A stretch of DNA of 64,000 nt from contig NZ_CP011393.1 in the NCBI RefSeq assembly GCF_001644665.1, positions 766,001-830,000 on the forward strand. The letters are read 5' to 3'. A model generated the notes under the pieces. It had not been told where the DNA came from. It made no database searches and saw only the letters and a list, made by a program, of their open reading frames with translations. This DNA comes from Fervidobacterium pennivorans. GTDB lineage: Bacteria; Thermotogota; Thermotogae; Thermotogales; Fervidobacteriaceae. The position numbers were made by a program, and so were the translations under genes. Positions 17,932 through 37,106 of the stretch are shown one piece after another; position 1 is the stretch's first letter; each line of letters opens with the position of its first letter.

Positions 17932-18231
17932 ATGGAATTGGAAAATGTGGCTGAACTTTTGAAAATTATCGGTCACCCGACAAGATTAAAAATATTACAG
18001 CTTCTAAAACAAAATGGTGAATTGTGTGTTTGTGAACTTCTTCCTTTGCTGGAAGTAAGTCAACCTAACCTCTCTCAACACCTTTCAATTTTGAAATTGA
18101 GTGGATTGGTCGAAAATAACAAAGTGGGCAACACTATCAGATATCGACTTTCAGATAACAAACTATTGAACGAAATTTTAGAGATTGTAGAAAAACATAC
18201 TTATTCGGAGGTGAATCCAAGTGGCAAGTGA
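17932..18231 (+). CDS. ArsR/SmtB-family transcriptional regulator
   Basis: A 99-residue winged-helix repressor. LKIIGHPTRLKILQLL opens the ArsR fold, and ELCVCELLPLLEVSQPNLSQHLSILKLSGLV contains the recognition helix. The ELCVCEL motif (cysteines ~29 and ~31) is the classic metal/metalloid-sensing site on the alpha-3 helix of ArsR-type proteins, so the inducer is probably a thiophilic metal or metalloid. A GTG three codons upstream is in frame, but ATG 17932 is preferred because GGAAGGTGG lies 5 bases before it. Its last 11 bases overlap the permease start, and the gene probably autoregulates through the palindrome at 17872. Confidence 0.9.
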   Translation: MELENVAELLKIIGHPTRLKILQLLKQNGELCVCELLPLLEVSQPNLSQHLSILKLSGLVENNKVGNTIRYRLSDNKLLNEILEIVEKHTYSEVNPSGK

Positions 18232-19325
18232 GATTAAACTGTTTATAGCTATTCTTATTGTATTTTTAATTTTCTACTTCGTTCCATTTGATTTACCGAT
18301 TGTTAGTGAAAGCATTCTCAACGGTTTCAAGATGCTCAACGAATATGCACGTGAACATGTTCTTCTCTGCCTTGTGCCTGCATTCTTTATTGCAGGAACA
18401 ATCTCTGTCATGCTGAAGAAAGATGCTATTCTAAAACTCCTTGGTCCTGATGCAAAACGATACATTTCCTATCCGATTGCTGCAATCAGTGGCGCCATTC
18501 TTGCTGTGTGTTCCTGTACAATTCTTCCACTCTTTGGTGGTATATACAAAAAAGGTGCTGGAATAGGACCTGCAACGACATTCTTATTTGCTGGACCTGC
18601 GATAAATATCGCTGCAATATTCTTGACAGCACGCGTACTCGGTTGGGATTTAGGGATTGCCAGAATGATAGCAACAATTACAGCAGCGATAATAATAGGT
18701 CTTATTATGGAACTTTTATTCAAAGAAAAAGGCGTTGGTGGCTTTGTTCAGACAACCTCGGATGGTACAGATAACGTAAAAGCAATTGTTTTCTTCCTAA
18801 TACAACTACTCTTCATCATTGTCTCAGGACTAAAGATTAACCCAACCGTTAAATATTCAAGTTTGGGTTTTCTTGGACTTAGCATATTAACAATGGCGGT
18901 ATTTGGATTTGAAAAAGACCAAACAAAGAGCTGGATAGCTGAAACTTGGGACTTTGCAAAAAAAAATACTTCCATATCTATTTGTTGGTGTATTCCTTGC
19001 GGGAGTAATTACAAAACTATTGCCACAAGATGTAGTTGTTTACTTGCTTGGAAAGAATAACATATTCTCAACTTTTATAGCTTCCGTTATAGGTGCACTA
19101 ATGTACTTTGCAACCCTTACAGAAGTTCCTATAGTTCAAGCACTCACACAACTTGGAATGGCAAAAGGTCCTACACTTGCATTGCTCATGGCTGGAAACA
19201 CTCTTAGCTTGCCAAGCATGATAGTTATAACAAAACTTATCGGCAAAAAGAAAGCATTTACTTACTTCGGACTCGTTGTGCTTTTCTCGACTCTGTTTGG
19301 AATGATATATGGGCTGATAGCTTGA
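18221..19325 (+). pseudogene. UPF0718/ArsP-like permease, frameshifted at a run of nine A
   Basis: A multi-pass permease of the DUF318/UPF0718 family. The GTG start at 18221 is preceded by TCGGAGGTGAAT. The N-terminal 245 or so residues carry the family motif AVCSCTILPLFGGIYKKGAGIGPA with its CxC pair. The frame then goes wrong at the A-run 18958-18966: with nine A the product ends after a short tail at 19060, while with eight A it continues as DFAKKILPYLFVGVFL and runs to 19325, giving a normal ~367-residue permease. Both halves are otherwise undecayed, which suggests a recent indel, polymerase slippage at the homopolymer, or a sequencing error. The family members near ArsR and small thioredoxins are thought to export a thiophilic metal or metalloid. 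Confidence 0.8.
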
Positions 19326-19688: not shown

Positions 19689-20588
19689 TTACTCCTCTTC
19701 AAAATAGTCCGAATCAATCTTTTTAATCTCAATAACACTATCCACACGCACTCCGAGGTTGTATTTAATCATATAATCAAGCAACTTGTCACCATCGATA
19801 AGAACGACTTTTATGTCCTTTATATTTTCAGCATATTGCAGAGCTTCTTTGGTAAACGATGCGGTTGTGATGAATATACCCTTTCTTGCACCCTTGCCAT
19901 GAAGTGCGCCAACAAAGCTTTGGATTTCCTTTCTACCTATCGATTGTCCAGGATTGTATCTTTTCGCTTGTAAGTATATATTATCTAGCCCGAGAACGTC
20001 TTCTTTAATCACCCCATCAATACCTTCATCCCCACTTTTCCCAAGCACTTTGCTTGCTTCTTCGAACGACCCACCATATCCCATCTTCACAATCAATTCC
20101 AAAACAAGCTTCTCAAAAAAATGAGGACTCTTTTCAAGAATCCTTCGTCTTAATTCGTCTTTGAGCTTTGCTTTAAGAACCTCGAGTTGTTCAGATATTA
20201 TTTCTTCGGGTGGTTGTTCAGTTGGATCGCCAGTATTACTATCCTCTGGCTTATCAGCGAGCTTTTCCAAATCTTTGGAATAAATCACTTTAGGATTCTT
20301 TTTCAATACATCCAAGCCTCGGTGCGTTATTCTATAGACACCCCTATAGACACCCCTCTCATTCTCTGGATATTCTATAGCTGAGGCTCTCCTTAAATGA
20401 AAAATCGCCCATCTAACTCTATTAATGAAGATAAAATCATTACCACTTGCAAGCCTCATCCTTCTTTCTTCTTCTGTAACGTTAAAATACTTGGTTAAAT
20501 GTTCGATTATATCTTTTATCGTATGTTCTTTTCCATCTGCAAGAAGTTCGAGGATGGGTTTATAACATTCAAAAGTTTTTGGAATCAT
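19689..20588 (-). CDS. Mrr-type restriction endonuclease
   Basis: A 299-residue nuclease. The N-terminal winged helix (~1-100; ILELLADGKEHTIKDIIEHL to ITHRGLDVL) is the Mrr_N domain. The C-terminal ~170-290 is the Mrr catalytic domain with the PD-(D/E)xK core DEGIDGVI (~207-214) and IYLQAKRY (~223-230), then FITTASFTKEA. Mrr enzymes of this type cleave DNA carrying foreign methylation. A perfect 12-bp tandem repeat (20332-20355) duplicates the residues GVYR in the linker of the winged helix. The ATG at 20588 has AGAGGAAG about 10 bases upstream. It is the last gene of a five-gene series on this strand that includes a methylase. Confidence 0.85.
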   Translation of the reverse strand: MIPKTFECYKPILELLADGKEHTIKDIIEHLTKYFNVTEEERRMRLASGNDFIFINRVRWAIFHLRRASAIEYPENERGVYRGVYRITHRGLDVLKKNPKVIYSKDLEKLADKPEDSNTGDPTEQPPEEIISEQLEVLKAKLKDELRRRILEKSPHFFEKLVLELIVKMGYGGSFEEASKVLGKSGDEGIDGVIKEDVLGLDNIYLQAKRYNPGQSIGRKEIQSFVGALHGKGARKGIFITTASFTKEALQYAENIKDIKVVLIDGDKLLDYMIKYNLGVRVDSVIEIKKIDSDYFEEE

Positions 20589-20637
20589 TTTGGATATTCT
20601 TCCTCTAAACGTTAATACTTATAGAATAGTCTCTCAC

Positions 20638-21276
20638 TTACTTCTTAAGTAATCTGTTATAATATTCTCTTCCCTTTTCTGTGATTTCCCAAATACCCCG
20701 TGGAGAATTATCTGATAAAAAACCTTGTCTTACCAAATCAAATCTCACCCACTGTGCAGCATTTTCCCAACGTATTTCTCCTGAGCTTGGTAGTTTCTGC
20801 ATATCGTACCATGTTAGTTTCACTTTCATTTTCTCATAGACTCGTTTGAGAACTTGTCCTATTTCTCCTTTTCCACCAAGTTCTATTAGGGATTCTAGTA
20901 TTGGAATAACATATTCCTCTTTTGGAGTCCTCATCCCTTTCTTTAGTCTTTCTTTCGCTTTCTTGATGACACGTTGTACTGATTCAGAATTGATAAGTTC
21001 ATCATCGTTTTTCTGAGTGCTTGTTTCAAAAGTCTCATTTCTAATCTCTTCCCGTTCAAAAATCTCTTGCCATTTTTTCTTAAGTGCTATTACTTTTTCT
21101 TTGTATTCTTTTACCTTCTGCCCCACTTCAATAAGTGCTTTTGCTTTTTCAAACTCTTGCTGTTTAGATAGCTCAGCAATTCTTTCGCTAAGATCGTTAA
21201 TTGCTATGTCAATTTCTTCTTCCAGAATCTCAAACGCAACTTCCACACCCTTGCTCTTATCTTTGCCGTCTGCCAC
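20638..21276 (-). CDS. Coiled-coil plus Mrr_N-like winged-helix protein (copy 1)
   Basis: A 212-residue protein with two parts. Residues ~10-75 are a long charged coiled coil (EEEIDIAINDLSERIAELSKQ). Residues ~118-212 form a winged helix (RTPKEEYVIPILESLIELGG, then IRWENAAQWVRFDLVRQGFL and GIWEITEKGREYY) very like the N-terminal Mrr_N domain, but no nuclease domain follows. It is clearly paralogous to the next gene upstream (21330-21986). It lies 49 bases upstream of the mrr gene and reads in the same direction. A DNA-binding regulator or accessory subunit of the neighbouring restriction genes is likely by context, but this is inferred. Confidence 0.75.
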   Translation of the reverse strand: MADGKDKSKGVEVAFEILEEEIDIAINDLSERIAELSKQQEFEKAKALIEVGQKVKEYKEKVIALKKKWQEIFEREEIRNETFETSTQKNDDELINSESVQRVIKKAKERLKKGMRTPKEEYVIPILESLIELGGKGEIGQVLKRVYEKMKVKLTWYDMQKLPSSGEIRWENAAQWVRFDLVRQGFLSDNSPRGIWEITEKGREYYNRLLKK

Positions 21277-21329
21277 CCTACCGCCTCCTAAAAATACTCA
21301 ATGTTAAAATTTCAGCACATGGGTTCGCA

Positions 21330-21986
21330 TTATTCTGAAGTTTGTCTCACACTATTATTACTCTTCAACTTTTCAACATGTTGTAGGTAATACTCTCTTC
21401 CTTTATCTGTTATTTCCCATATGCCGTTAGGAGAATTGGGTTCTAAGAGTCCCTCTTTAATCATCATTTTCCTTGCCCATCTTGCTGTATTCCTCCAACG
21501 AATCTCACCCGCGGGAATCTTTTCCAGGTCGTAGGTTTTTAGTTTGTTTTTCATCCTTTCAAAGACTAATTTTAGCACCTCACTTACTTTTCCTTTACCA
21601 TCAAGCTCGATTAGTGATTCAAGTATCGGGATAATAAATTCCCGTTCAGGAGTTCTCATACCTGTCTTATTGTTTTGTTTCAATTCTCTAGGAGCTTGCT
21701 CTCTTGCTTCGGAACTACCGTTTTGAGAACTGATTTCAATCCGTGTGATGATAGCTTTCTCATTTCCGATAATCTTTCTCCACTCTTCTTTGAAAGCAAT
21801 TAACCTATTCTTATACTCTTTTATCCTTTGGGCTATGTCAATCAACTTTTTAGTTCTTTCGAAGTCCTGCTTTTTAGAGACCTCAGCAATGCTTTTAGCA
21901 AGGTTGTTAACTATTTTACCGATTTCTTCCTCAAGCATCTCAAATGCTATGTTTACACCTTCTCTGACATTAATCTTGTTGTTCAT
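21330..21986 (-). CDS. Coiled-coil plus Mrr_N-like winged-helix protein (copy 2)
   Basis: A 218-residue paralogue of the downstream gene. It has the same coiled coil (EEEIGKIVNNLAKSIAEVSKK) and the same C-terminal winged helix (RTPEREFIIPILESLIELDG, IRWRNTARWARKMMIKEGLL, GIWEITDKGREYY). The frame is open to 22046, but ATG 21986 is preferred: it has GGGAGTGACAAT upstream and yields a protein matching the paralogue in length. The pair has diverged in the linker (~85-115) much more than in the winged helix, so DNA contacts appear to be the conserved part. A heterodimer is possible. Confidence 0.75.
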   Translation of the reverse strand: MNNKINVREGVNIAFEMLEEEIGKIVNNLAKSIAEVSKKQDFERTKKLIDIAQRIKEYKNRLIAFKEEWRKIIGNEKAIITRIEISSQNGSSEAREQAPRELKQNNKTGMRTPEREFIIPILESLIELDGKGKVSEVLKLVFERMKNKLKTYDLEKIPAGEIRWRNTARWARKMMIKEGLLEPNSPNGIWEITDKGREYYLQHVEKLKSNNSVRQTSE

Positions 21987-22322
21987 ATTGTCACTCCCAC
22001 AAGGATTTATCAAGATATTTCTAAAAGATATTCTCGTTCGATTCATAACGACGAAAGTTTACTTTTAACGTATTTAAAATCGTTTTATAAATAACTCTAC
22101 TGGACAATCAAAAATATATCCAAAAGCCGTTTGATGTTCTTTTATTAAATTAGCCATCGCTCCGCTCTAAATTGTTCGAATTTTTTCTTCATTTTCATCT
22201 ACCATTACTTGGTCATTGACTCACATTTTCTTGTGAATTATTAACACCGAAGAGATCGACATGTTTTATTTTTATTTAGGTGTTAGCCTTTTAAGATAAT
22301 CCGATGAAATCTTAAATTTTTA
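21987..22322. other. 336-base intergenic region inside the defence cluster
   Basis: AT-rich sequence between the methylase stop and the winged-helix pair. No supported gene or clear terminator was seen. It probably holds the promoter of the winged-helix/mrr group on the - strand, but no hexamer pair with good spacing could be identified. Confidence 0.5.
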
Positions 22323-25300
22323 TCAGCCTTCGTTTGTTCTAGATTCTTCGATAATTTGGATTTCATCTTCTGTTAAGTTATAGAACTTATAAACAATCCT
22401 GTCAATTTGTTTCTCCAAATCAGCAGTTTGCCTTTCAGAACTGTTCATCTTCAAATCAATGATTTTTTCCACAAGCTCCAAAATTGTGATAAAATCGGCC
22501 TGGTCAAGTTTTTCGATTTCAGGAATCGGAAAACGTCCAATGAACTCACCTTTTATCTCACCTTCAATACCTCCACCCATATAAAACTTGTAGAATGCAA
22601 ATTCAAAAAGTTCTGAGTTCAAAATTCCTAAGATAAATTTTAAAATTCCTGTGATTTTTGGAGTCCCAGACAGAATATGAGTTATAAAGTGTGTTGTTGC
22701 TTCGCAGTACAGGACTTCTGATACTAATGCAAATTTTGGCGATTTAGTCACCCTTTGCCAAACAATTTTTTCCTTCTCGAATTCGGAATAGTAATCGCAA
22801 TGTCTGAGTTCCCACCAATAGTCTCCACGATCATCCCTTGTGAACAACCCCTTCTGCCTTCCACGAAACTCTACATTTGAGAATTCCATGAAGTAATTGT
22901 AAAGTGAAGGGAAAGTTTGCCTGAAGAACTCTTCGGGGTTTAACAATCCACGGTTTTGGTTTGTCCAACCAGCCGGAATAAGAATCAACCACATCCCTGC
23001 CCATTGGTAATAATACCTTCCTATATCCCTTCCCCTGAGGACTGGTTTTATGATTTCTTCTGTTTTTCTTCTCTCTTCTTCTGTTTTGCAGTTTTTAAGT
23101 ATCCTATTACGTGTCTCTGTGTCTATGATGAATGCTTCATTGTAACCGGTCAGCACTCCTCGATAAATCTTAACATCCCAATCTTTCAGAGGTTTACCAA
23201 TCTTTTCGATTTTTTCCTTTATTGCCAAAATCCTGTCATCAGCAAGAGTCCATGCACTGTCAGAAAGTTTCGACTGGGGCATCTTTTGCCAATTGTTTTG
23301 AATGAATTTTATCGAATCTTCGACGTCACTTTTTACCTCAACATACTTAAGTTCGTGATTTAAGCTTGGTTTCTCTTTTTTTAGAAGAATTATGTTCGTA
23401 TCTACCGTCTGTTCAAATACTCTGTATCCTCCAAAGTCAACAAGTTCTAAAATTTGTGCGTTCTCCTTTAAAAACCTTCGGAGCTTTTCTCCATACTTTG
23501 CTCTCATCCACTTGTTACTTGTTATATATGTTAGTATCCCTTTATCCTTAAGAAGGCGGTATCCTTTTTCGTAAAAATAGACGTAAAGATCAGCAGTGGA
23601 TGTAAAAACTTCGTAATTTTGCTTTTCAAGGATAGGTTTAAGAGGTTTTATTCTTTCTTGCCTTACATAAGGCGGATTCCCAATGACTATATCAAATCCA
23701 TCTTTGACACCAAACATCCATTCTGAGTCAAACCAATCAGCCGAAGCATTTGGATCGAACGGGTCAAAGGAAGCAATCTTCTCCGCCGATTCACTTGGGA
23801 ATCCGACGGAGATAAGGTCTTTCTTTATTTTCTCTCTTAGTTTCTTATCTTTCTCTTGCAGTTGCACTTTTTGTCTTCTTGTTTTTGCAGTGAAATATCG
23901 GTGCCTTAGCCTTCGAAGTTCCTCAGCATCTTGGTGTATCACGCTTTCTCCAAGACTTATTTGTGTTCCTTTTTCAAGTCCTATTAGTGTATTTGCTGCA
24001 ACAAATTTTGTTTCAAGGTTTGGTAAGGGTCTGATACCGAAGTTTTCTTTCGTTTTGTCTATTTTCTGGTCTAATATGAGTGATATAAAGAACCTTAATT
24101 TAGATATTTGAACAGCTATTGGCTGGATGTCTACACCGTATATTGAGTTCTCGATAATGTATAATTTTCTTGCATAGTCGGGGTAGTTTAACGATTCATC
24201 AAAAACCTCCTGAAGTTCCTTTAACGCACGCTTTATTTCTTCATCGGTTATTTCTTGATCCTGAAATACTTGCACTATTTCCTCTCTTATCTTTTTTCTT
24301 TGGAGTTCCCTCCAATGTATATTCTCTGGGTCCAGTCTCTCTATAATATGAACAAGTTTGTGTAATATACCCATAGGGAAAGCGCCAGAACCACAAGCAG
24401 GATCAAGAATCTTTATTTCATCAATTGCTTGGAGCAACTTTTCCTTTTCGTTTTCAGAAAACTCCGGAAGCTCGTCACTGTAAGAAATCAATAGTCTGAT
24501 TCGTTCTTCTTCGATTTCTGGAACCTTGTCTTTCAAGTATTCAACTAAGCTTTCTTCAACCATAAAGTCAACAATTTCTCTAGGGGTGTAGTAGCTTCCT
24601 GTAGCCTTTCTTGCCGATGCTGATGTTTCTGGGTTATACGAAGCTAAAAGGTTTTCAAATACTTTTCCAAGCAATTCTGGGTCCAGCGCAATTTCTTCAT
24701 CTATTGGAGATGCTTCATCGGTAGTCCAGTTGTAGTCACGAAAGATGTTAAATAATCCTCGCACCTTTTCATTTCTTGAAAGTCCATAAGCTGATAAATC
24801 GGCTATGATTTCCTTGTCATTAAAGAACAAATAGTCTGGTATTATCGCTTGCTTTGAAGGATTTCTTGAGAAGCCGTCTATATATACAACCTTATTGTTG
24901 TTCTCTGGGTCTTCTTTGTCGAGGCAATCAAACAAACCACCGTTCAGAAAAGGAATATCCCTAAAAAGTTCAAGAACTTCTTCTTTAGAGATGAGAAACT
25001 TGTCAGCATAGCGATAAAGGGTCTTCACTCCATAATGAGGATTGTAAGGTTTTCCACCTTCAGAAGCAAAAGCACGGTCTTTTTGCCTTTGATTCAGTGT
25101 TGCAAAGAATAAGTTTTGAAGGATAGCGTTGTAGTAGTTTCTGCTTTCTTCATTCACAAGAAAATCCTTGACAATGTGTTTAAGCTGGGATTCGTCGAAC
25201 AATTTTTCGGGTATTAGTTCTTTTTCCCTGAGAAACCAAACAAAAATTAGTCTTGTCAGCAACCTGATTAAATTTGTTGCGTTTCGGATTTCTTTATCCT

Positions 25301-25901
25301 TTTCTGGATCGTCTGAGAATCTGTAATCTTCAGGGAACTTGACCTTGTCCATTGCATAGAAGTACCAGGCCTGAAGTTCCTTGTAGAACTGCTTGGTAAG
25401 CGGTTGAACGGAGAATGCTTCTTTAATTTCTTTCAGGTTTTTCCAAGTGACATCTTTGAGTTGCGTAATGAATGTCTTAAACGGACGCTCTTTTGAAAGA
25501 AAGAATGTGTATCGTTTATAGTGAGAGTATTTTTCTTTTGTTCCAAAATATTGCTTGTAGACAAAAGAAATTCTAAAATTCCTATTCTCATCATGGAAGA
25601 AGAAGATTCCAGCATCTGCGAATTGGTTCGAGAGAATTTTCTTTGCAATCTCGAATTGCCGCTTCTTCGAACTTCTTTCCGTTATTGTCCCATCCATTTT
25701 CACCAAATAAAAATGTAGTGTGGCACTGTCGTCAAGTTCCAGAAGTCCAATTCGTATTACCGGCATTTCCAAACCCGGTAGTTCGACATATTCCAGCTCA
25801 CGTTGGAAATCAGGATTGCGTTCTTCAATGTAGTCAATAACAATATTTTCAATAGGCTCATTCGAATTTAGAAGTTTTTCGACAAAGACCTCCGTTTTCA
25901 T
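22323..25901 (-). CDS. Eco57I-type N6-adenine DNA methyltransferase, large
   Basis: A 1192-residue protein with adenine methyltransferase motifs: ILDPACGSGAFPMGIL (motif I, ~497) and NPPYVRQERIK (motif IV, ~739). A TaqI-like/Eco57I specificity region follows (GVLTGYNEAFIID, LRGRDIGRYYY, and a segment near ~1100 with YCEATTHFITH). The N-terminal ~400 residues hold a helical region without a recognisable PD-(D/E)xK motif, so it may be modification-only. Size and layout fit the large methylases of phage-defence systems (PglX-like) and type IIL/IIG enzymes. It starts at ATG 25901, 30 bases after the helicase gene, so the two form an operon. Confidence 0.8.
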   Translation of the reverse strand: MKTEVFVEKLLNSNEPIENIVIDYIEERNPDFQRELEYVELPGLEMPVIRIGLLELDDSATLHFYLVKMDGTITERSSKKRQFEIAKKILSNQFADAGIFFFHDENRNFRISFVYKQYFGTKEKYSHYKRYTFFLSKERPFKTFITQLKDVTWKNLKEIKEAFSVQPLTKQFYKELQAWYFYAMDKVKFPEDYRFSDDPEKDKEIRNATNLIRLLTRLIFVWFLREKELIPEKLFDESQLKHIVKDFLVNEESRNYYNAILQNLFFATLNQRQKDRAFASEGGKPYNPHYGVKTLYRYADKFLISKEEVLELFRDIPFLNGGLFDCLDKEDPENNNKVVYIDGFSRNPSKQAIIPDYLFFNDKEIIADLSAYGLSRNEKVRGLFNIFRDYNWTTDEASPIDEEIALDPELLGKVFENLLASYNPETSASARKATGSYYTPREIVDFMVEESLVEYLKDKVPEIEEERIRLLISYSDELPEFSENEKEKLLQAIDEIKILDPACGSGAFPMGILHKLVHIIERLDPENIHWRELQRKKIREEIVQVFQDQEITDEEIKRALKELQEVFDESLNYPDYARKLYIIENSIYGVDIQPIAVQISKLRFFISLILDQKIDKTKENFGIRPLPNLETKFVAANTLIGLEKGTQISLGESVIHQDAEELRRLRHRYFTAKTRRQKVQLQEKDKKLREKIKKDLISVGFPSESAEKIASFDPFDPNASADWFDSEWMFGVKDGFDIVIGNPPYVRQERIKPLKPILEKQNYEVFTSTADLYVYFYEKGYRLLKDKGILTYITSNKWMRAKYGEKLRRFLKENAQILELVDFGGYRVFEQTVDTNIILLKKEKPSLNHELKYVEVKSDVEDSIKFIQNNWQKMPQSKLSDSAWTLADDRILAIKEKIEKIGKPLKDWDVKIYRGVLTGYNEAFIIDTETRNRILKNCKTEEERRKTEEIIKPVLRGRDIGRYYYQWAGMWLILIPAGWTNQNRGLLNPEEFFRQTFPSLYNYFMEFSNVEFRGRQKGLFTRDDRGDYWWELRHCDYYSEFEKEKIVWQRVTKSPKFALVSEVLYCEATTHFITHILSGTPKITGILKFILGILNSELFEFAFYKFYMGGGIEGEIKGEFIGRFPIPEIEKLDQADFITILELVEKIIDLKMNSSERQTADLEKQIDRIVYKFYNLTEDEIQIIEESRTNEG

Positions 25902-25931
25902 TTTCTTATTCCTCCTTAATCGTTAAGATAT

Positions 25932-28900
25932 CTAACGGGTATTCTCTATCGATATCATAATCTCTATTTTTGGTTTTGAGAGCTGGACGTTCTCGAGGTA
26001 ATCTTTACCGCCGAGCTGGTTCACTATTTCGTCAATCCTCTCCTTTAACTTGTTGATTTCGCGAGATGATATTTCAGAGGAATTTTCAAAAACTTTTCCA
26101 ATTCTTTCTATCTCCTTCAGTGTGGCTTCCGGTAGCCCACCGAATGTTTCAATGTGTTTTATCAACAATTTGATTACTTCGTGGTGACTTTCAAGTTCTG
26201 GATGATTAAGTAGTGTTTTAAGAGCATTGTAGGCTTTCCTTTCATTTTTAGATATTTCCTTCGTGTGCTTTTCCAGAGATTTAAGATGTTCCTTTAGTTT
26301 ATTGTACGCTTCCCAAAATCTGTTGTTTAGCTTATTTGACCTACAGTTTGCATCACAGCGGATGTCAGAAAGTACATCAATTAAATCCAGTGTGTCTTCA
26401 ATTTCCTGTGTAGCATAGTTGTATCGGATTATAAAGAGACTGTTGTTTTTCTTGACAAAGAGTATTTGATTTTCGTTACCCTCACTCTTTTTCGATACCT
26501 TAACTCTAGGTGGCATGTTACTTATTCTTTCTTCTATATCTGGAATGAGTCTTTTCAAGTTATCGAATTCTTTCATAGCTATTGTTAGCGGGCTCTTGTC
26601 ACCTTCTGCTGTTCTCTCAATCTCATCGTAATTTGTAAGTTTACTGTAGAGTTTAGATGCACTTGGTTCTTCATCTTCTGAGAATATTTTTGCATCCTCA
26701 CCAAGGGCGTTATGGATAAGGAAAAGCTTTGTCTCAGCAATCTCGCGTTGTTTGATCTGTTCTTCACCTTTTTCAGTAGGGAAGAAATTGACTATATAGA
26801 GTTCGTCGTATATCTTTTGACCAATTCTATTAATTCTTCCAACTCTTTGAATGACCCTGACAGGGTTCCAGGGAATATCGTAGTTTATTACAACACCAGC
26901 TCTTGCCAGATTGAAACCCTCTGATAACTTATCAGTAGCTACAAGAACATTGTAGTCGTCTCTCCTCTTATCCTTTTTTACAGTCGCATCAAAGTTAGAC
27001 CTTATCTTTTCAAGTAGTTCATTTGTGAGATCATTGTCAACTGCCAGCAGTTTAAATTCTTGTGATAGGTGATCCCTTATGTACCTTACAGTATCACGAT
27101 ATTCTGTAAATACTATTATCTTTCTTGATGGGTTCTCGTTTATCAGTTCGTAAAGTGTAGATTTGAGTGTTTCTATCTTTGGATCGACCTCTGTCAATTT
27201 TAGGTCTTCCATTTCAATAAGAATAGACTGAAGGAGTTCCTGGTCATGCTTTATATGTTCTATGAATTCTTCTTTTTTCTTAAACTCAGATATATCGTAT
27301 ATTGAGTTTCTATCAACCTTGGAAGCTCCATTTAATCCCTCAGCCAATTTTTGTTCAATGAGCTCAAACACTTCATCATCTTCGAGCTCATCCATTTCTT
27401 CAAGGATTTTTCTATCAAACGTATAATAACCATATCTTTCTATGAACTCTAAGATTCTCTCACAATTTGTCATTATTGTTTTTACGGAATTTCTGAATGC
27501 TCCAAAGCTGCTTTCAAACCGTTTGACTAGTAATCTTCTTATTAAGTCCTTTAAATTTTTCTGACTTAAATACTCAAAGTTGGATTCATCGTTGTCAAAA
27601 ACACCTTCCCTGTAAAAGTAAGGGGTGTATATTGCACCTATGAATTTGCCAGGTTCTCCGAAGTAATCGTTTATGACTCTGTCGTAGAATTCTGATTGTT
27701 CTTTTGTTAGTTCATAGAATTTACCGATTGGATCTTTGACAATTGACATTTGACCAACTTCTTCTTTATATCTTGGGTTTTCTTTCAAATCAATTCTGTT
27801 TCTTCTGATTATCACAGGCTCGATAAACCTTCTAATCTCTTTGGATAATTTCTTTATTCGCTCTTCTACCTCGTTAATTTCTTCCTTACCAATAGAACTT
27901 ATCGTTTTCTTGAAAACCTCTTGATACAGTCGGACTAACTCGTCTTGCTTTTTTTGGAGTTTTGCGTATTTCTTAATTTTTAGGAGCTTTGAATACTCGG
28001 ATTGAAAACGCGCTATCTTCGATTCAATGTTTGGTGACAAGTCGATAGTGGAGTTCTTAGAGCTTTGGAAAAGCTTAATCAAAGAGAATATATCAGATGG
28101 TCTATTGTTAAATGGTGTTGCTGTCAGAAGGATTACTTTTCTTCCGAAGCAAACGTTGTAGAGTTTTTCATAACTCTTTGTTTTTGGATTCCGAAACCTG
28201 TGTGCCTCGTCAACAATAACCAATGAAACTTCGGGGTTTTCTCTCACGTATTCGAGCGGTTCATCAAGCTTACCAATGGAAAATACCTCCCAGTCATCCC
28301 TCATTCTGAACTGCTTGAGATACTCTTCCCACATATTTACCAAACCAGGAGGTGCAATTACTATACCTTTTTCCCTAAGTATCTTCGCAATCCCGAGAGC
28401 TATCACTGTTTTACCAAGACCAACAACATCGGCAAGGATAACTCCAGAATGGTTCTCTAATTTGGAAATAGCATCCTTTATAGCATCTATTTGGTATGTG
28501 AAAACTGTGTAATTATTCTTAGAAAGTAATTTTCTAAACTCATCTACTGGATGTTTTGGAATTGCTGAATCTATGTATGTTTTCAATATGTATGCATAGG
28601 CTTCAACAGGTGACACACTTTTTCCGGGATGGGTTTCTTGTGAAAGGATTCTAATAAACTTTTCCTTCCATTCTTGTTTCTCAGTAATTGGAATTGAACT
28701 ATTCCAGAGGTCTGAAAAGAATTTATATGCTTCTTGAAATCCAAAGTCAGAGATTTCAACATTGAACTCCTGCTGTTCATTTAGTCCTGCTTTTGTTAGA
28801 TTGCTACTTCCAGTAATGAATAGACCAGGTCTAATTGTTTTGTCGGCAAGATGGAATATATAGAGTTTTGAATGGTTTGGTTCCCTTGTTTTCCTCACCT

Positions 28901-29267
28901 GGATTTTTCCATCACTAATATATTCAATTAGCTTTTGAAAAAGTTTGTAAGAATCAGCATTATCCGTCATTTCATCGTTAAATGCAACTTTTATTGATTC
29001 AAAAAACTTTTCCACACTTTCACTTCTTGACTTGGTATCATTATAAGCAAATTCATATAGTAAGTCTTCATTCTTACCGACATCCAGACCTACGAGAATT
29101 CTCATGGTCAATTCAGGATTTTCTTCAATTGCTTTATGAATAAGATTGTAACCAGATAGATAAAAAAATCCGACAAGAATATCTACTTGCTTAGATACTC
29201 TGATAAGCTCATTAAGACGCTCGTTTAAGGTTTTCCCTTCATTCTCTCTATTGGTAATTATGTACAA
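25932..29267 (-). CDS. PLD-nuclease / SNF2-type helicase fusion
   Basis: About 1111 residues. The N-terminal ~160 residues are a phospholipase-D-type nuclease module with HSKLYIF (HxK, ~130) and GSSNLTKAG (~150). Then comes a superfamily-2 SNF2-like helicase: ADVVGLGKT Walker A (~281), VIVDEAHRF (~351), LLTATPFNN, and the C-terminal lobe SEGFNLARAGVVINYD and QRVGRINRIGQ (~780-815). The last ~250 residues are helical. A DNA translocase linked to a nuclease next to a methylase is what a restriction-type defence system needs. The frame extends to 29339, but the TTG at 29267 has GGGGTGATGAGT before it; ATG 29273 is the alternative. Confidence 0.82.
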   Translation of the reverse strand: MYIITNRENEGKTLNERLNELIRVSKQVDILVGFFYLSGYNLIHKAIEENPELTMRILVGLDVGKNEDLLYEFAYNDTKSRSESVEKFFESIKVAFNDEMTDNADSYKLFQKLIEYISDGKIQVRKTREPNHSKLYIFHLADKTIRPGLFITGSSNLTKAGLNEQQEFNVEISDFGFQEAYKFFSDLWNSSIPITEKQEWKEKFIRILSQETHPGKSVSPVEAYAYILKTYIDSAIPKHPVDEFRKLLSKNNYTVFTYQIDAIKDAISKLENHSGVILADVVGLGKTVIALGIAKILREKGIVIAPPGLVNMWEEYLKQFRMRDDWEVFSIGKLDEPLEYVRENPEVSLVIVDEAHRFRNPKTKSYEKLYNVCFGRKVILLTATPFNNRPSDIFSLIKLFQSSKNSTIDLSPNIESKIARFQSEYSKLLKIKKYAKLQKKQDELVRLYQEVFKKTISSIGKEEINEVEERIKKLSKEIRRFIEPVIIRRNRIDLKENPRYKEEVGQMSIVKDPIGKFYELTKEQSEFYDRVINDYFGEPGKFIGAIYTPYFYREGVFDNDESNFEYLSQKNLKDLIRRLLVKRFESSFGAFRNSVKTIMTNCERILEFIERYGYYTFDRKILEEMDELEDDEVFELIEQKLAEGLNGASKVDRNSIYDISEFKKKEEFIEHIKHDQELLQSILIEMEDLKLTEVDPKIETLKSTLYELINENPSRKIIVFTEYRDTVRYIRDHLSQEFKLLAVDNDLTNELLEKIRSNFDATVKKDKRRDDYNVLVATDKLSEGFNLARAGVVINYDIPWNPVRVIQRVGRINRIGQKIYDELYIVNFFPTEKGEEQIKQREIAETKLFLIHNALGEDAKIFSEDEEPSASKLYSKLTNYDEIERTAEGDKSPLTIAMKEFDNLKRLIPDIEERISNMPPRVKVSKKSEGNENQILFVKKNNSLFIIRYNYATQEIEDTLDLIDVLSDIRCDANCRSNKLNNRFWEAYNKLKEHLKSLEKHTKEISKNERKAYNALKTLLNHPELESHHEVIKLLIKHIETFGGLPEATLKEIERIGKVFENSSEISSREINKLKERIDEIVNQLGGKDYLENVQLSKPKIEIMISIENTR

Positions 29268-29363
29268 ACTCATCACCCCAACACGACATTTTAAAATATT
29301 CTCCAAAAAGTAATGAAATGACATTTCAACAAAGCACAAAAGTTTTTAGGTTCCTCATTTAAT

Positions 29364-29391
29364 ATTATACCTCACTTTCTTATTTACGTAA
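29364..29391 (-). promoter_or_regulatory. Candidate promoter of the helicase-methylase operon
   Basis: A perfect TATAAT on the - strand (29364-29369) about 95 bases upstream of the helicase start. The best -35 (TTACGT, 16-base spacer) is weak. Confidence 0.4.
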
Positions 29392-29409
29392 CACATCTTT
29401 TCGCAAAAA

Positions 29410-29446
29410 GAAAAAATTCCACAAGCGTTTTGGTGCTTTGTGGAAC
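29410..29446 (-). terminator. Terminator after the broken UvrD-type gene
   Basis: On the - strand the stem TTCCACAAAGC / GCTTGTGGAA (one bulge) is followed by TTTTTTCTTTTT. It is about 165 bases after the end of the helicase pseudogene. Confidence 0.65.
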
Positions 29447-29611
29447 TGATTAAGCTATTAGTAGTTTGTCGTTGTTTGGCTATTCTTAATTATTTTTCAC
29501 ATCTCTTTTTCGTCTAATTCTTTCCAACTTTACAAAACTAATATCAAAAAAGTTCAATTATGCCTATTATAACTATTGGCACCAAACACTTACAGCCACA
29601 CCCTATCAAAT

Positions 29612-31524
29612 CTAAACTTTCTCTATCAAATCATTCGGCAACTTCTCAACAAAATCAGGCAAGTCTTTATGTGGGTTATCTTCCCTTTTGTGCCATTGCG
29701 ATTGGGAGATATACAAAATTTCTTCCGCCCTCGAGATAGCTGTGTAAAGTATCCTCTCTTCTTCGTCGAGTAAGCTTTCTTGGACTGAGCGAGAGTCAGG
29801 AAAATCACCAAGATTAACTCCTAAGATAAAGATGATTTTCCACTCTTTACCTACTGCTTGGTGAACTGTTGAGAGGGTTATCGCATCTGTATTGGATATA
29901 TCAAGATTATCAGGATTTCCCAGTGACAATATATCTGAAGCCAACGTGATGTCGTCGATAAAGTCTTTGTTGGAAAAGTATCCACTTGCAAAGGTTATTA
30001 GCTTTTGTATGTTCCTATCGATTTCGCTGAGCTTGTTTTTGATTTCGTACTTTTGTGATATTGTGCTTTTACAGAAGTTTTCGTAGAAGGTCTTTAGTTG
30101 TTCGTAGTGTAATTTATCCATGGAGTCTTTGAACACCTGTTTTAGTAATGCTAAGTCGCAGTTACTTACACTCATTTCAAAGAATGCATCAAGCGGATTT
30201 TGAAAGTCTCTAAGCACGTTCATTACCCTAAACGCAACCTCATCGTCTATACCTTCGATATTTACAAGAATCCTATACCAAGCTATCGAATCAAACGGAT
30301 TTTGGAAGATTTTGAGAAAGGAAATCATGTCTTTTATGTATGCTTGGTCTTTAATTCTTTTATCTGAGTAGTTGACGTATGGAATTTGTCTTTTACGCAA
30401 TTTTCTTTGCACGTTGTAAAGGTAGTCGCTTTTTCTTGATAGCACAGCAATGTCTTTATATGTATATCCTTGCGCTGAATGTTTTTCTATTATTTGCACT
30501 ACCTTTTGTGCCTCTTCCTCGTCGTCTTTGGCAATAATAACTACTGGCTTTTGCGTCCCTTGTTGGGTAGCATTCAATTCTTTTGGAATTGCGCTTTTTG
30601 GTAGGAAAAAGTTGAGCAGTGTGACTATTTTGTCTGTGCTTCTGTAATTGGTTTTGAGTGTCAAAATCTTTGAGTCTTTCATGACATCTTTTAGGTTATC
30701 AAGCCTTGCTCCGGCAAAGGAATAGATGCTCTGTGCATCGTCGGCTGTGATGAAAAAGTGGTTATCTGATAAAAGTTTTTTGAGAAGTTCGTATTGGATG
30801 GGAGTTGTGGGCTGAAAATCATCGACAAAGAGCCATTTGTATTGGGATTTGATTTGAGAGCGGATAGTCGGTTTTTCGTTTAATAGTTTGATTGTTTTAA
30901 AAAGTAAGTCTTCAAAATCTAGTATGTTGCGCTTTGCCTTTTCTTGTTCGTAAGCGTTGTAAAATTTCTCAACAAGTGATTTGGCATTTGGCCGATTTTG
31001 GAATTGCTTTTCGATAAGTTAAGAAAGTGGAGTGCAGGTGTTGATTGAATCTGAGTACAGACTGTAGAGTATGCTTTCGTGGGCAAGGTAGTAATCTGTG
31101 TAAAATGCTTCGATATTTTTGTTTAAACTTAGTAGTTTCATGTACTCTTTTGCATCGTGTTGGTCGAAGATGGTATAGTTTGGTGATATATCTATTTCAT
31201 TTGCGTATGTTCTGAGCCAGGTGTTGCATATGGTATAGAACGTGCCGGAAAGAATTTTATTTTCACATAGGTTAATTTCTGTTATTTTTTCAACAGTAGA
31301 GATTATCTGCTTGGCGGATTTGTTTGTAAATGTGAAGAGCAAGATTTCAGAAGGCTTGACATCACTGAGTAATAGATAGGCAATCTTGTTTGCAATTAGT
31401 GTAGTTTTACCAGTCCAGGTCCAGCGAGGAGGATTGTTTTTTTATCGGACATTTTAATAATTCTTCGTTGGTATTCATCGAGACTCTTAAATGCCCAAAA
31501 CACTTTTGAGGTTTCTTTTTCCAT
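29612..31524 (-). pseudogene. UvrD/Rep-type superfamily-1 helicase, broken twice
   Basis: Reading from ATG 31524 the frame gives KTILLAGPG and is then lost by one missing base in the Walker A motif (near 31412-31418). The next frame restores TGKTTLIANKIAYLLL and FTNKSAKQI. An in-frame TAA at 31019-31021 follows, and the same frame continues with ILDFEDLL, WLFVDDFQPTTPIQ, DDAQSIYSFAGARL and NYRST, ending at 29612 with the C-terminal motif TLSTVHQAVGKEWKIIF and LYTAISRAEEILYIS. All helicase motifs can be recognised, total ~637 residues, so this is a recently inactivated small UvrD-like helicase rather than an ancient ruin. A ribosome site AAAGGATGA precedes the start. Confidence 0.82.
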
Positions 31525-31541
31525 AGTGACAATTCATCCTT

Positions 31542-31964
31542 TCAAAGCACTTCATATGATAATTTCTTTTTGACCAACTCCCCACTGCAGTGTAGCGGTA
31601 TTATCTGTTCAATTGGCAAGCTCTTAAGAATAGAGATAGTTTTATCAACCTTTTCCTCGGATGATTTGTAGAGATGAAATCCACCAATGAGGAGTTTGAT
31701 TTTCTTATCAAACAATTCAAGCGCATCTTGGGCTATGTTTATTATCCCTCTGTGTGCACATCCGGTTATGAGTACAATTCCATCTCCTTCGTCAATGACA
31801 AGGTTTAATTCTTCTTCAAAAAAGTCTCTAACCTTTTCGTTGTTCTTTATAATTTGGAAATTAGGGTCTGGTTCTTCAAATTTGTTCCTCATCCATGCAG
31901 GTCCAAAGGCATAAATAGAATTGGTTATTTTGATGAGTTTGTCTTTGGCAATAAGAAATTCAAA
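31542..31964 (-). pseudogene. 3' fragment of an MBL-fold hydrolase (partial duplicate of 34435-35232)
   Basis: This stretch repeats the last ~140 codons of the metallo-hydrolase at 34435 with about 15 differences in 400 bases by eye (for example FEEPDPNFQ against FEEPDSNFQ). Homology stops abruptly at AAATTCAAA (~31964) on one side, so the metal-binding HxHxDH half is missing and the fragment cannot be an active enzyme. The C-terminal tails differ (KKKLSYEVL here, KKKFGMLYTF in the intact copy). Together the two copies form direct repeats around the AlbA_2 gene and the insertion sequence. Confidence 0.8.
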
Positions 31965-34434: not shown

Positions 34435-35232
34435 CTAAAATGTATACAACATTCCAAATTTCTTCTTGATTAATTCCCCACTGCAGTGTAGCGGTATTAT
34501 CTGTTCAATTGGCAAGCTCTTAAGGATCGAGATAGCTTTATCAACCTTTTCCTCGGATGATTTGTAAAGATGAAATCCTCCAATAAGGAGTTTGATTTTT
34601 TTGTCAAACAATTCAAGCGCATCTTGGGCTATGTTTATTATCCCTCTGTGTGCACATCCGGTTATGAGTACAATTCCATCTCCTTCGTCAATGACAAGGT
34701 TTAATTCTTCTTCAAAAAAGTCTCTAATCTTTTCGTTGTTCTTTATAATTTGGAAATTAGAGTCTGGCTCTTCAAATTTGTTCCTCATCCATGCAGGTCC
34801 AAAGGCATAAATAGAATTGGTTATTTTGATGAGTTTGTCTTTGACAATAAGAAATTCAAACGAGTCTTTTAGCGCTTCCCAGTCTGTTCCTGTGAATCTG
34901 TCATCACTGTATTTGGGTAAGAAAGCGTCTTGTCTAAGATAAACCTTGAACTTCTTGCCAAAAGAAGTCATATATTTCAACCCGCCTGCGTGGTCGTAGT
35001 GACCGTGGCTAATGACAATATACTCTACCTTGGTAAGGTTTTTACCAGTGGTACTTGCATTTTTCATGAATACATCAGTTGTACCGGTGTCAAATAGCAC
35101 GATTGGGTTGCCAGCTTTTTCAACCAGCAAAGAAAAGCCGTGCTCGGAGTGTAGTGGCGGTTGAAGAGTATCATCGCAAAGGATAGTCAAATTAGTAGAC
35201 CCAATGGTAATTGATGAACTGTTGTTTTGCAC
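34435..35232 (-). CDS. MBL-fold metallo-hydrolase (COG1237-like)
   Basis: About 265 residues. The metal-binding signature SHGHYDHAGGL is at ~75-85, with FDTGT before it and a third ligand in ITGCAHRGI (~190-198). The C-terminal IIPLHCSGEL is typical of the branch related to dihydropterin-ribofuranosyl-aminobenzene phosphate synthase-like enzymes; the substrate here is unknown. The frame is open to 35382, but that would cross a terminator hairpin, so the GTG at 35232 with AAGGAGGCTCAAAA upstream is preferred. The IS has inserted 14 bases past its stop. Its 3' part is duplicated at 31542-31964. Confidence 0.85.
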   Translation of the reverse strand: MQNNSSSITIGSTNLTILCDDTLQPPLHSEHGFSLLVEKAGNPIVLFDTGTTDVFMKNASTTGKNLTKVEYIVISHGHYDHAGGLKYMTSFGKKFKVYLRQDAFLPKYSDDRFTGTDWEALKDSFEFLIVKDKLIKITNSIYAFGPAWMRNKFEEPDSNFQIIKNNEKIRDFFEEELNLVIDEGDGIVLITGCAHRGIINIAQDALELFDKKIKLLIGGFHLYKSSEEKVDKAISILKSLPIEQIIPLHCSGELIKKKFGMLYTF

Positions 35233-35286
35233 TTTTGAGCCTCCTTGTATGTAGTTCACCTCTACAATTATACTACCTTTAAGAAT

Positions 35287-35312
35287 AATCGTGCCCCAGT
35301 CGGGGCACGATT
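35287..35312 (-). terminator. Hairpin terminator after the secreted-protein gene
   Basis: A perfect 11-bp stem AATCGTGCCCC / GGGGCACGATT with a 4-base loop. On the - strand it is followed by ATTCTT, a weak T-rich tail. Confidence 0.7.
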
Positions 35313-35372
35313 TGGTGAATTGAATATTTTGAATATAATGTAACTCAATGTTCCTTTTTGTCACTGGGTATA

Positions 35373-37106
35373 TTACTCCCAAGCAGGTTCAACGTACAGA
35401 ATAACACTTATTCTTCCGTTGATTATATCTGAGTAGATATCCTTGTCGTAATAGAGTATATCTACAATATTGCTTGGTTCGACATCGTATTGTGCGATAT
35501 CCATGTGGATAATAACGTAAACCGTTCCATCGTCCATGACAACACTTTTTACATCGAAGTAGTCTGGTATGTAATCGATATAACCGTAATCGTACAAATC
35601 TTCCAAAGTAACCTCTTGTGCTCCTTGGTCACGGATGTAATCAGCACATGCATTGAATATTTTGACTATTTCGTCTGCTATCTCGTATTCGAGCTCAGAA
35701 TAGCTAATTTCTTCTGTTGTTACTTCTTCTGTTGCTGTTTCTTCTGTCGTGTATTCTTCTTCATACTCTTCCTCATATTCTTGTTCGTAGTATTCTTCTT
35801 CGTGGTATTCTTCTTCATAGTATTCTTCGTCCCGTTCCTCTTCATATGTTTCTTCAAAATATGGTTCTACTACTTCTTCTAACTTTTCAAGGAACCAGGC
35901 TAAGTTATCAAACTCTCCAGTTATTGACAAATTACCATTGTCCAAAATTTCAGTTTTTATACTAAGTGTTGCCGAGCTTTCTTCATCAGAGTAGTTCATG
36001 TAGAGTATAAACGAAGCGTTTTCAGTTAGTGACTTTAGCAAGGTTTTGTCTATCTCGATTGGGAATACGTTTATTTTTTGATTTTCGACAACTACTTGAT
36101 ATCCCGTGCTTGAGAGTTGATTTTTTAGTATTGATGCTATAAATTTCGCATCTTGTTCGTTTTCGGGTTTGATTATACCAGAGAACGTGAAGTATCCATC
36201 AAAACTTGCAGAAAATGCAACTGATTTAAAGATGTCCAAGAATTCGAATATCTGTTGAAAATCTTCAAAAATATCTAAGTCCCAGTCACCGGTTCCGGTT
36301 AGTATGGAAGTGTCACCAATCTGACTTGTGTCTAAAGCGAGAATAAAGTTAGCTCCATCCAGATAGGAAAGTCCTTTCAGGATACCTCTTCTGGTAAGTA
36401 CTAGTTTTTTCTCGTAGTCAGAAAATGTTTTGTTAATTGTAATTTTGAAGCTATAGTTTTCGCCTTTCTTGGTGATAACAATTTCATCATAGATAGGAAT
36501 GCCAAAATAATCTCCAAACGTGTATAAGAGTTCGCCTATGAATGACTTTTTGTATGTCTTAAAGTAAGCTATAACGTCATCTTTTGTTAATAGAGATATA
36601 CTCGAAATCTTGGCATTTAGCATGTCTTTTGTGAACATGGAGATGTCCTTGTTAAAACACAGATAAATATTATCGTTTGAGCGTATGATACAGAGTTTTT
36701 TGTTATCAATTGTAACTATCGATGGTTGGTTGACCGTTAGTTTTGGGATTTGAATATTGGCATCAAACATATAATTAATCAAAAACTCTAAACTCTTGTC
36801 ACCAATCTTTCCTGGGAGCACTATACCTATTGGTGAACCGATCAAGACCTTAGGTGAAAAATCTTCGAGCTCATCAAAAATTGAAAGGCTTAGTGCACTA
36901 CCTAACGAAAATTTTCCATACACAGAGATTATTGGAGTTATGCCTGCTTCTTGAAGAATGGCTGTAAGTTCTTGGTCACCGATGTTATTGATGTTAAAGT
37001 ACATAACGAAATCGGAGTTTCCTGGAACGAATATGGTGATAGCGAATAGATAGAATGACGATAACAGCGTGCTCAAAACAACCAACAAAATAAGCTTTCT
37101 TGCCAT
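35373..37106 (-). CDS. Secreted protein with an acidic Glu/Tyr-rich linker
   Basis: A 577-residue protein with a signal peptide (~1-24, LILLVVLSTLLSSFYLFA). The N-terminal ~410 residues look like a large beta-rich domain (FVPGNSDFVMYFNINNIG, then KNQLSSTGYQVVVEN), reminiscent of DUF3352-type proteins. Residues ~412-475 are a low-complexity linker of Glu and Tyr (EEYYEEEYHEEEYY). The last ~90 residues form a separate small domain (EVTLEDLYDYGYIDYIPDYF). No enzymatic motif is visible; a surface or periplasmic role is likely. The ATG at 37106 follows AAAGGGGGTATC. Confidence 0.5.
   Translation of the reverse strand: MARKLILLVVLSTLLSSFYLFAITIFVPGNSDFVMYFNINNIGDQELTAILQEAGITPIISVYGKFSLGSALSLSIFDELEDFSPKVLIGSPIGIVLPGKIGDKSLEFLINYMFDANIQIPKLTVNQPSIVTIDNKKLCIIRSNDNIYLCFNKDISMFTKDMLNAKISSISLLTKDDVIAYFKTYKKSFIGELLYTFGDYFGIPIYDEIVITKKGENYSFKITINKTFSDYEKKLVLTRRGILKGLSYLDGANFILALDTSQIGDTSILTGTGDWDLDIFEDFQQIFEFLDIFKSVAFSASFDGYFTFSGIIKPENEQDAKFIASILKNQLSSTGYQVVVENQKINVFPIEIDKTLLKSLTENASFILYMNYSDEESSATLSIKTEILDNGNLSITGEFDNLAWFLEKLEEVVEPYFEETYEEERDEEYYEEEYHEEEYYEQEYEEEYEEEYTTEETATEEVTTEEISYSELEYEIADEIVKIFNACADYIRDQGAQEVTLEDLYDYGYIDYIPDYFDVKSVVMDDGTVYVIIHMDIAQYDVEPSNIVDILYYDKDIYSDIINGRISVILYVEPAWE

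What the first reader, a model, noticed from the sequence alone, without database searches (positions are those of the whole stretch)
19689..29273. Five-gene defence-type cluster: PLD-SNF2 helicase, large methylase, twin winged-helix proteins, Mrr nuclease
Five genes run head-to-tail on one strand. Seen directly: PLD HxK plus SNF2 motifs, adenine methylase motifs, two paralogous coiled-coil/Mrr_N-like proteins, and an Mrr PD-(D/E)xK core. Known: methylases with helicase-nucleases form restriction and DISARM/BREX-like systems, and Mrr cuts foreign methylated DNA. Inference: this may be one layered system in which the methylase marks self, the PLD helicase attacks unmarked DNA, and Mrr plus the twin winged-helix proteins attack wrongly marked DNA or regulate the set. 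None of the BREX or DISARM marker genes (pglZ, brxC, drmB) is present, so this does not match a named system I know.
Basis: partly seen in the sequence, partly recalled or inferred. Interest (0 to 1): 0.8.

Follow-up and report, generated by a model that had tools for sequence, protein, structure and literature searches.

The report
Helicase-methylase restriction pair plus loose neighbours
Two of the five genes (a nuclease-helicase fusion and a DNA methylase) form a widely conserved restriction-modification-like pair, while the twin winged-helix genes are a recurring accessory of several such systems and the mrr nuclease is an independent neighbour in the same defence hotspot.

Summary
The genes are real and correctly described: PLD-SNF2 helicase (25932-29273), Eco57I/TaqI-type adenine methylase (22323-25901), two paralogous coiled-coil + Mrr_N winged-helix proteins (WH1 21330-21986, WH2 20638-21276) and Mrr (19689-20588), all on the minus strand. 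They are not one five-gene system. The helicase-methylase pair is the unit: the methylase lies within 3 kb on the same strand in 38 of 43 informative loci from many phyla (27 adjacent, many with a 4-nt overlap), with no obligatory third gene. It most likely works as a minimal ATP-dependent restriction-modification system: the methylase marks self, the PLD-SNF2 protein translocates and cuts unmarked DNA. The WH family joins such pairs repeatedly, and also sits beside type III R-M, DUF499 and Dnd-like/methylase genes, so it is an accessory shared by modification-based defences. Mrr is the weakest link: a decayed mrr fragment occupies the same site in a congener whose block is a type III R-M system without the other four genes. 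A 336-nt gap also separates the pair from WH1-WH2-mrr. Marker domains of BREX, DISARM/ARMADA and DUF499 (BR) systems are absent from the genome. All functional claims are inferred.

The parts
25932..29273 (-). PLD-SNF2 helicase: N-terminal PLD nuclease domain (HxK, GSSN, E) fused to a SNF2/SF2 helicase; predicted translocase-nuclease of the pair (ORF open to 29339)
   Evidence: H156/K158/N180/E191 and helicase motifs invariant in 8 aligned sequences
22323..25901 (-). Adenine-specific DNA methyltransferase, Eco57I/N6_Mtase core with C-terminal TaqI_C target-recognition domain; N-terminal ~430 aa without an invariant PD-(D/E)xK site
   Evidence: CamA, BseCI, BrxX are the nearest solved structures
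21330..21986 (-). WH1: two-helix coiled-coil hairpin + Mrr_N winged helix, no catalytic domain
20638..21276 (-). WH2: paralogue of WH1 (50% identity); AlphaFold model: helices 3-38 and 42-86, then winged helix (mean pLDDT 86.5)
19689..20588 (-). Mrr-type (type IV) restriction endonuclease, Mrr_N + Mrr_cat with GxDG...QxK
21987..22322 (-). 336-nt gap without a recognisable gene that separates the helicase-methylase pair from the WH1-WH2-mrr block
   Evidence: no relic of a known gene found
29361..29459 (-). Element just 5' of the helicase gene, 88% identical in a congener (L183 7510-7609), where it precedes a type III R-M block: shared hotspot boundary
19913..20163 (-). Part of mrr that is matched (83%) by a decayed mrr fragment at the same site in congener G004 (L183 17335-17604)

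Best explanation
The core is a two-gene ATP-dependent restriction-modification-like system. The methylase recognises a site through its C-terminal target-recognition domain and N6-methylates an adenine, marking self. On unmethylated DNA the PLD-SNF2 protein, probably recruited to the methylase, uses ATP to move along DNA and cuts it with its PLD nuclease. The twin winged-helix proteins are a separately evolving, DNA-binding accessory that modification-based defence systems recruit repeatedly, probably a subunit or reader that works with the methylase complex, less likely a transcriptional regulator. Mrr is a stand-alone modification-dependent (type IV) nuclease resident in the same hotspot: a second layer that may cut wrongly modified DNA, but not a part of the pair. 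Shown: gene content, domains, intact motifs, linkage. Inferred: methylation, translocation, cutting, recruitment and the role of the WH proteins.
For: Pair linkage: 38 of 43 loci with at least 2.5 kb on both sides have an Eco57I-type methylase within 3 kb on the same strand, 27 directly adjacent, many overlapping by 4 nt; two further loci have one a few kb away. Catalytic motifs are invariant in helicase and methylase. Other operon genes are diverse, no family in more than 8 of 87 loci. WH joins the pair: PLD-MTase-WH (L133), MTase-WH-PLD (L144), PLD-MTase-caspase-Mrr_cat-WH (L030), PLD-MTase-GmrSD-WH (L044); in L139 the WH overlaps the methylase stop by 4 nt. In the same 400 Chloroflexota genomes the helicase is in 13, WH in 21, both in 4 (0.68 expected, p 0.003; 0.018 without the seed genome). 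WH forces at least 4 changes on the helicase tree, so joining looks repeated. WH also lies beside type III R-M (L021, L136, L192), DUF499 (L137) and DndE-HerA with a methylase (L148). Mrr independence: mrr relic at the same site beside a type III system in G004.
Against: No activity has been measured for any member. Some loci (L052, L075, L100) have the helicase without a methylase within 3 kb. The methylase partners are diverse (Thermus-type ones are shorter and match weakly). About half of the WH loci have no recognisable modification system nearby. The mrr relic in G004 could also mean that the whole five-gene block was once there and was replaced.
Confidence: 0.7

Rival explanations
1. One integrated five-gene system: methylase marks self, PLD-helicase attacks unmarked DNA, Mrr plus twin winged-helix proteins attack wrongly marked DNA or regulate the set.
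For: All five genes fill the interval between two flanking elements shared with a congener, on one strand; WH adjoins the pair in other phyla and in one case (L030) together with a different Mrr_cat protein.
Against: The exact five-gene set was found nowhere else; 36 of 38 genomes with the pair lack WH; no other locus has this Mrr; mrr relic at the site beside type III R-M; 336-nt gap between the blocks.
Confidence: 0.12
2. Five unrelated defence genes thrown together in a hotspot; even WH has no functional tie to the pair.
For: The site is a hotspot: G004 and G008 carry another block, a type III R-M system in G004, between the same flanks; WH occurs without a recognisable system in about half of its loci.
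Against: Pair linkage is far too tight; WH follows the methylase with gaps of -4 to 36 nt in L133, L139, L144 and L191, and co-occurs with the helicase above chance.
Confidence: 0.15
3. The WH twins are transcriptional controllers (C-protein or BrxR analogues) that time expression of the methylase and nuclease or of mrr. (Compatible with the best explanation for the pair.)
For: Winged-helix fold; WYL-domain regulators are known to co-localise with diverse defence systems (PMC9122601, title and abstract).
Against: In the compact loci WH lies behind or between the enzyme genes, not upstream; no shared motif above chance between the two upstream regions (8 matches against a mean of 4.1 and up to 14 in shuffles).
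Confidence: 0.3
4. The PLD-SNF2 protein is a modification-dependent nuclease like SauUSI and the methylase only an adjacent orphan.
For: Same PLD + helicase order as SauUSI (PMC12707154).
Against: No SRA or other reader domain detected; methylase linkage and 4-nt overlaps across phyla.
Confidence: 0.08

Closest known systems
Type-2 BREX-related (BR) systems, DUF499-centred (NAR 2026, PMC12839542; the DUF499 operon is also noted in PMC7641849)
   Same: HKD/PLD nuclease fused N-terminally to a Swi2/Snf2 helicase, with an N6-methylase; proposed R-M-like mode.
   Different: They have a DUF499 ATPase, a DUF1156 methylase with nested TRD, and DUF3780; none was found here. This methylase is Eco57I/TaqI_C type with a C-terminal TRD.
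DISARM class 1 (DrmD + DrmMI) and ARMADA (PMC12458937)
   Same: A SNF2/RapA-like helicase next to a large Eco57I/PglX-like adenine methylase.
   Different: Both also have a YprA-like helicase (DrmA/ArmC); DISARM has DrmB. No MZB (PF09369) match in this genome. The helicase here carries its own PLD nuclease; DrmD model score 140 against cut-off 610.
SauUSI (type IV, PLD + helicase + SRA)
   Same: PLD nuclease fused to an ATP-driven helicase in one chain.
   Different: No SRA reader; paired with a methylase.
Type IIG enzymes and the methylases CamA and BseCI
   Same: Eco57I core with TaqI-like TRD.
   Different: No invariant N-terminal PD-(D/E)xK nuclease site in the alignment.
E. coli Mrr (type IV)
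   Same: Mrr_N winged helix + Mrr_cat with QxK.
   Different: The Mrr here is an ordinary member; WH1/WH2 differ from it in having the winged helix with a coiled-coil hairpin and no nuclease.
PADLOC C3a139 'HKD+Snf2' and PLD_Helicase; NCBIfam phospholipD_antiphage
   Same: Nuclease-helicase profiles of the same domain order.
   Different: Weak matches (117 and 82 bits; 132 bits against a cut-off of 1100).

Membership tests
BREX | PglZ | tested here: not met
   no PF08665 match in the genome (controls ring in 2 genomes)
BREX | PglX-type methylase above cut-off | tested here: not met
   94 bits against 500 for BREX-1
DISARM | MZB/DUF1998 protein (DrmB; YprA-type DrmA) | tested here: not met
   no PF09369 match in the genome (controls ring in 8 genomes)
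DISARM | DrmD helicase above cut-off | tested here: not met
   140 bits against 610
ARMADA | YprA-like helicase beside the BrxHII-like helicase and methylase | tested here: not met
   none among the cluster and neighbour proteins scanned; MZB absent from the genome
BR (DUF499) Type-2 | DUF499 ATPase | tested here: not met
   no PF04465 match in the genome (control rings in Thermotoga maritima)
BR (DUF499) Type-2 | HKD/PLD-Snf2 helicase | tested here: met
BR (DUF499) Type-2 | DUF1156 methylase | tested here: not met
   no DUF1156 in the methylase
BR (DUF499) Type-2 | DUF3780 protein in the locus | tested here: not met
   none among the cluster and neighbour proteins scanned
Type III R-M | N6_N4-type Mod and ResIII-type Res | tested here: not met
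   methylase is Eco57I/TaqI_C and the nuclease is PLD; true type III genes for contrast in L021 and L183
ATP-dependent R-M in the broad sense | linked methylase and helicase-nuclease | tested here: met
ATP-dependent R-M in the broad sense | protective methylation and restriction activity | not testable with these tools
   needs methylome and restriction assays
Mrr type IV nuclease | Mrr_N + Mrr_cat with intact QxK motif | tested here: met
Mrr type IV nuclease | cleavage of methylated DNA | not testable with these tools
   needs an assay
SauUSI-like type IV | SRA or other modified-base reader domain | tested here: not met
   no such domain detected in the 1135-aa protein
Type IIG enzyme | PD-(D/E)xK nuclease in the methylase chain | tested here: not met
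   no invariant acidic D...ExK set in the N-terminal part of 16 aligned methylases

The most novel reading that the evidence does not exclude
The coiled-coil + Mrr_N winged-helix family is a general plug-in subunit of modification-based defences (PLD-SNF2/methylase pairs, type III R-M, DUF499 and Dnd/HerA-type systems) that binds the methylase complex and reads DNA modification state, so that one small protein tunes many unrelated systems.
Probability: 0.3. Interest if true: 0.65.

Novelty: new variant of a known kind. Interest (0 to 1): 0.45.

Why it matters
The pair looks like a stripped-down form of the helicase-plus-methylase core that DISARM, ARMADA and BREX-like systems share, with the nuclease fused on. 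If two genes suffice for restriction, it is a tractable model for how those larger systems choose targets. It is spread over many phyla, including cultured thermophiles, yet none of the annotation libraries used here names the pair. The winged-helix accessory would be a testable case of one protein serving several defence types.

Tried and rejected
Viral contigs gave no WH relative. A shared operator between the regions upstream of the helicase and of WH1: no signal above shuffles. A relic of a type III res gene in the 336-nt gap: none. Promoter and terminator scans gave no more than shuffles. Structure of Mrr from one sequence: low confidence (pLDDT 53), not used. The PDB has no sequence relative of WH, and fold matches are generic winged helices (best E 0.003). 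PADLOC labels such as PglX, DrmMI, GajB or pAgo on these proteins were rejected as superfamily matches far below family level.

Full report
OBSERVATION. Pfam confirms the domains and the motifs are intact. The helicase keeps the PLD set H156, K158, N180 and E191 and the SNF2 motifs in all eight aligned sequences. The methylase has DPACGSGAF-type motif I and NPPY conserved in 16 aligned sequences and a variable C-terminal target-recognition part; its N-terminal 430 residues show no invariant PD-(D/E)xK set. The nearest solved structures are CamA, BseCI and BrxX. WH1 and WH2 are 50% identical and consist of a two-helix coiled-coil hairpin, a low-confidence linker and a winged helix. Gaps along the transcript are 30, 336, 53 and 49 nt, so the layout is a pair plus a trio. 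WH1 should start at 21986.

THE PAIR. A scan of one genome per species with an eight-sequence helicase alignment kept 80 loci from many phyla. In 38 of 43 loci with enough flank a methylase lies within 3 kb on the same strand, and in 27 it is adjacent; many pairs overlap by exactly 4 nt. L058 and L070 have one a few kb away. Order is mostly helicase-methylase (44) and sometimes the reverse (13). Other genes in these operons are diverse: AlbA_2 in 8 of 87 loci, GmrSD in 5, Bro-N, TIR, Fic and AAA genes in a few. So two genes are the conserved unit. This linkage, with intact motifs in both, is what supports a restriction-modification mode; activity itself is not shown.

THE WINGED-HELIX TWINS. 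The family is rare: 5 of 103 genomes in the phylum have any match, several of them only to Mrr_N-like parts; 21 of 400 in the phylum of G106 (Chloroflexota); 3 of 345 in the phylum of G117. It adjoins a PLD-helicase/methylase pair in L030, L044, L133 and L144, overlaps the methylase by 4 nt in L139 (whose PLD-helicase lies 3.4 kb on), and stands between an Eco57I methylase and a PLD protein at a contig edge in L191. In the same 400 Chloroflexota genomes the co-occurrence is 4 against 0.68 expected, p = 0.003, or 0.018 without the genome the search was centred on; not all four are adjacent (G260 is not). On the helicase tree the WH-bearing loci fall in separate places, at least 4 changes being forced. 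WH also lies beside type III R-M genes (L021, L136, L192), a DUF499 gene (L137), a DndE-HerA gene with a methylase (L148) and a methylase with an 820-aa protein (L149, L150). By my count that is 14 of 27 WH loci examined, or 11 of 24 if the window and the two loci found through the helicase are left out; the others have no recognisable system nearby. The count rests on seed proteins and selected Pfam scans, so it is a lower bound. Because WH follows or splits the enzyme genes in the compact loci, a subunit role is somewhat favoured over autoregulation from upstream; this is inference.

MRR. No other helicase-methylase locus has this Mrr. L030 has a different protein with an Mrr_cat domain, and G018 has an Mrr relative on another contig than its pair. 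Flank comparison shows a hotspot: in G004 and G008 the same flanks (permease and, in G004, a thioredoxin-like gene on one side, a metallo-beta-lactamase-fold gene on the other) enclose a different block, a type III R-M system in G004 and a similar gene set in G008. In G004 a decayed mrr fragment, 83% identical to window 19913-20163, lies at the same position beside the thioredoxin-like gene, and the element 5' of the window helicase (29361-29459) is shared at 88%. Mrr is therefore at least separable from the other four. The alternative, that the whole block was once in G004 and was replaced, is not excluded.

MECHANISM. Best supported: methylase marks self; PLD-SNF2 protein moves on ATP and cuts unmarked DNA; WH is a recruited DNA-binding accessory; Mrr is an independent modification-dependent nuclease. 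The combination can still act in layers, because Mrr may cut what the pair would spare, but nothing shows that the genes depend on each other. Gene composition is uniform (G+C 0.356-0.378) and neither supports nor excludes separate arrival.

COMPARISON. The closest described system is the Type-2 BREX-related system (PMC12839542; its DUF499 operon is also noted in PMC7641849), which has an HKD-Snf2 helicase and an N6-methylase but also DUF499, DUF1156 and DUF3780. DUF499 is absent from this genome and the methylase is of another type. DISARM class 1 and ARMADA share a helicase-methylase pair but have YprA-like proteins (PMC12458937); the MZB domain is absent here, and so is PglZ. SauUSI has PLD and helicase but an SRA reader and no methylase (PMC12707154). 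I found no paper in the open-access library that names the two-gene pair; subscription papers and REBASE were not searched, so it may be catalogued there. A GajB-like UvrD helicase next to the pair recalls ARMADA's ArmD, but it is broken and no YprA helicase was found.

VERDICT. Observation confirmed; single-system reading not supported; a conserved two-gene R-M-like core with a recurrent accessory and an independent Mrr. New variant of a known kind, interest 0.45.

Noticed in passing
window 29612-31342: Broken UvrD/GajB-like helicase: UvrD_C ORF 29612-30682 and an N-terminal fragment 31019-31342 (UvrD-helicase, E 3e-10).
   Followed up: partly
window 31542-31892 and 34435-35382: The 3' part of a metallo-beta-lactamase-fold gene is duplicated on either side of an AlbA_2/Schlafen gene and an IS transposase, suggesting an insertion with partial duplication.
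   Followed up: partly
window 18221-19325: A permease gene is split in two frames here but is one open frame of about 367 aa in congeners: frameshift or sequencing error.
   Followed up: partly
L183, L185 (congeners G004, G008): The same hotspot carries another block: in G004 a type III R-M system with an extra helicase and an SMC-like ATPase upstream of mod; PMC8259958 reports an extra helicase-like gene 5' of mod in some m4C type III systems.
   Followed up: partly
window 41529-45512 and 45860-47735: AT-rich (28% GC) 1327-aa DUF4011/AAA helicase with a C-terminal MTES_1575 nuclease, followed by a second AlbA_2 gene and a lone HsdM_N fragment: a second defence island, perhaps recent.
   Followed up: no
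L005, L006, L026, L039, L042, L055, L087, L101: AlbA_2/Schlafen-like genes lie beside or between the PLD-helicase and methylase genes in 8 of 87 loci; this window has two AlbA_2 genes nearby.
   Followed up: no
L152 (G163): Four tandem matches to the winged-helix domain in one GC-rich stretch: a possible tandem-domain member of the WH family.
   Followed up: no
L030 16846-17997: A caspase-like (Peptidase_C14) gene sits inside the PLD-methylase-Mrr_cat-WH operon, a possible cell-death arm.
   Followed up: no
window 22078-22161: Short ORF in the 336-nt gap (MANLIKEHQTAFGYIFDCPVELFIKRF) without a relative in the fetched loci.
   Followed up: partly
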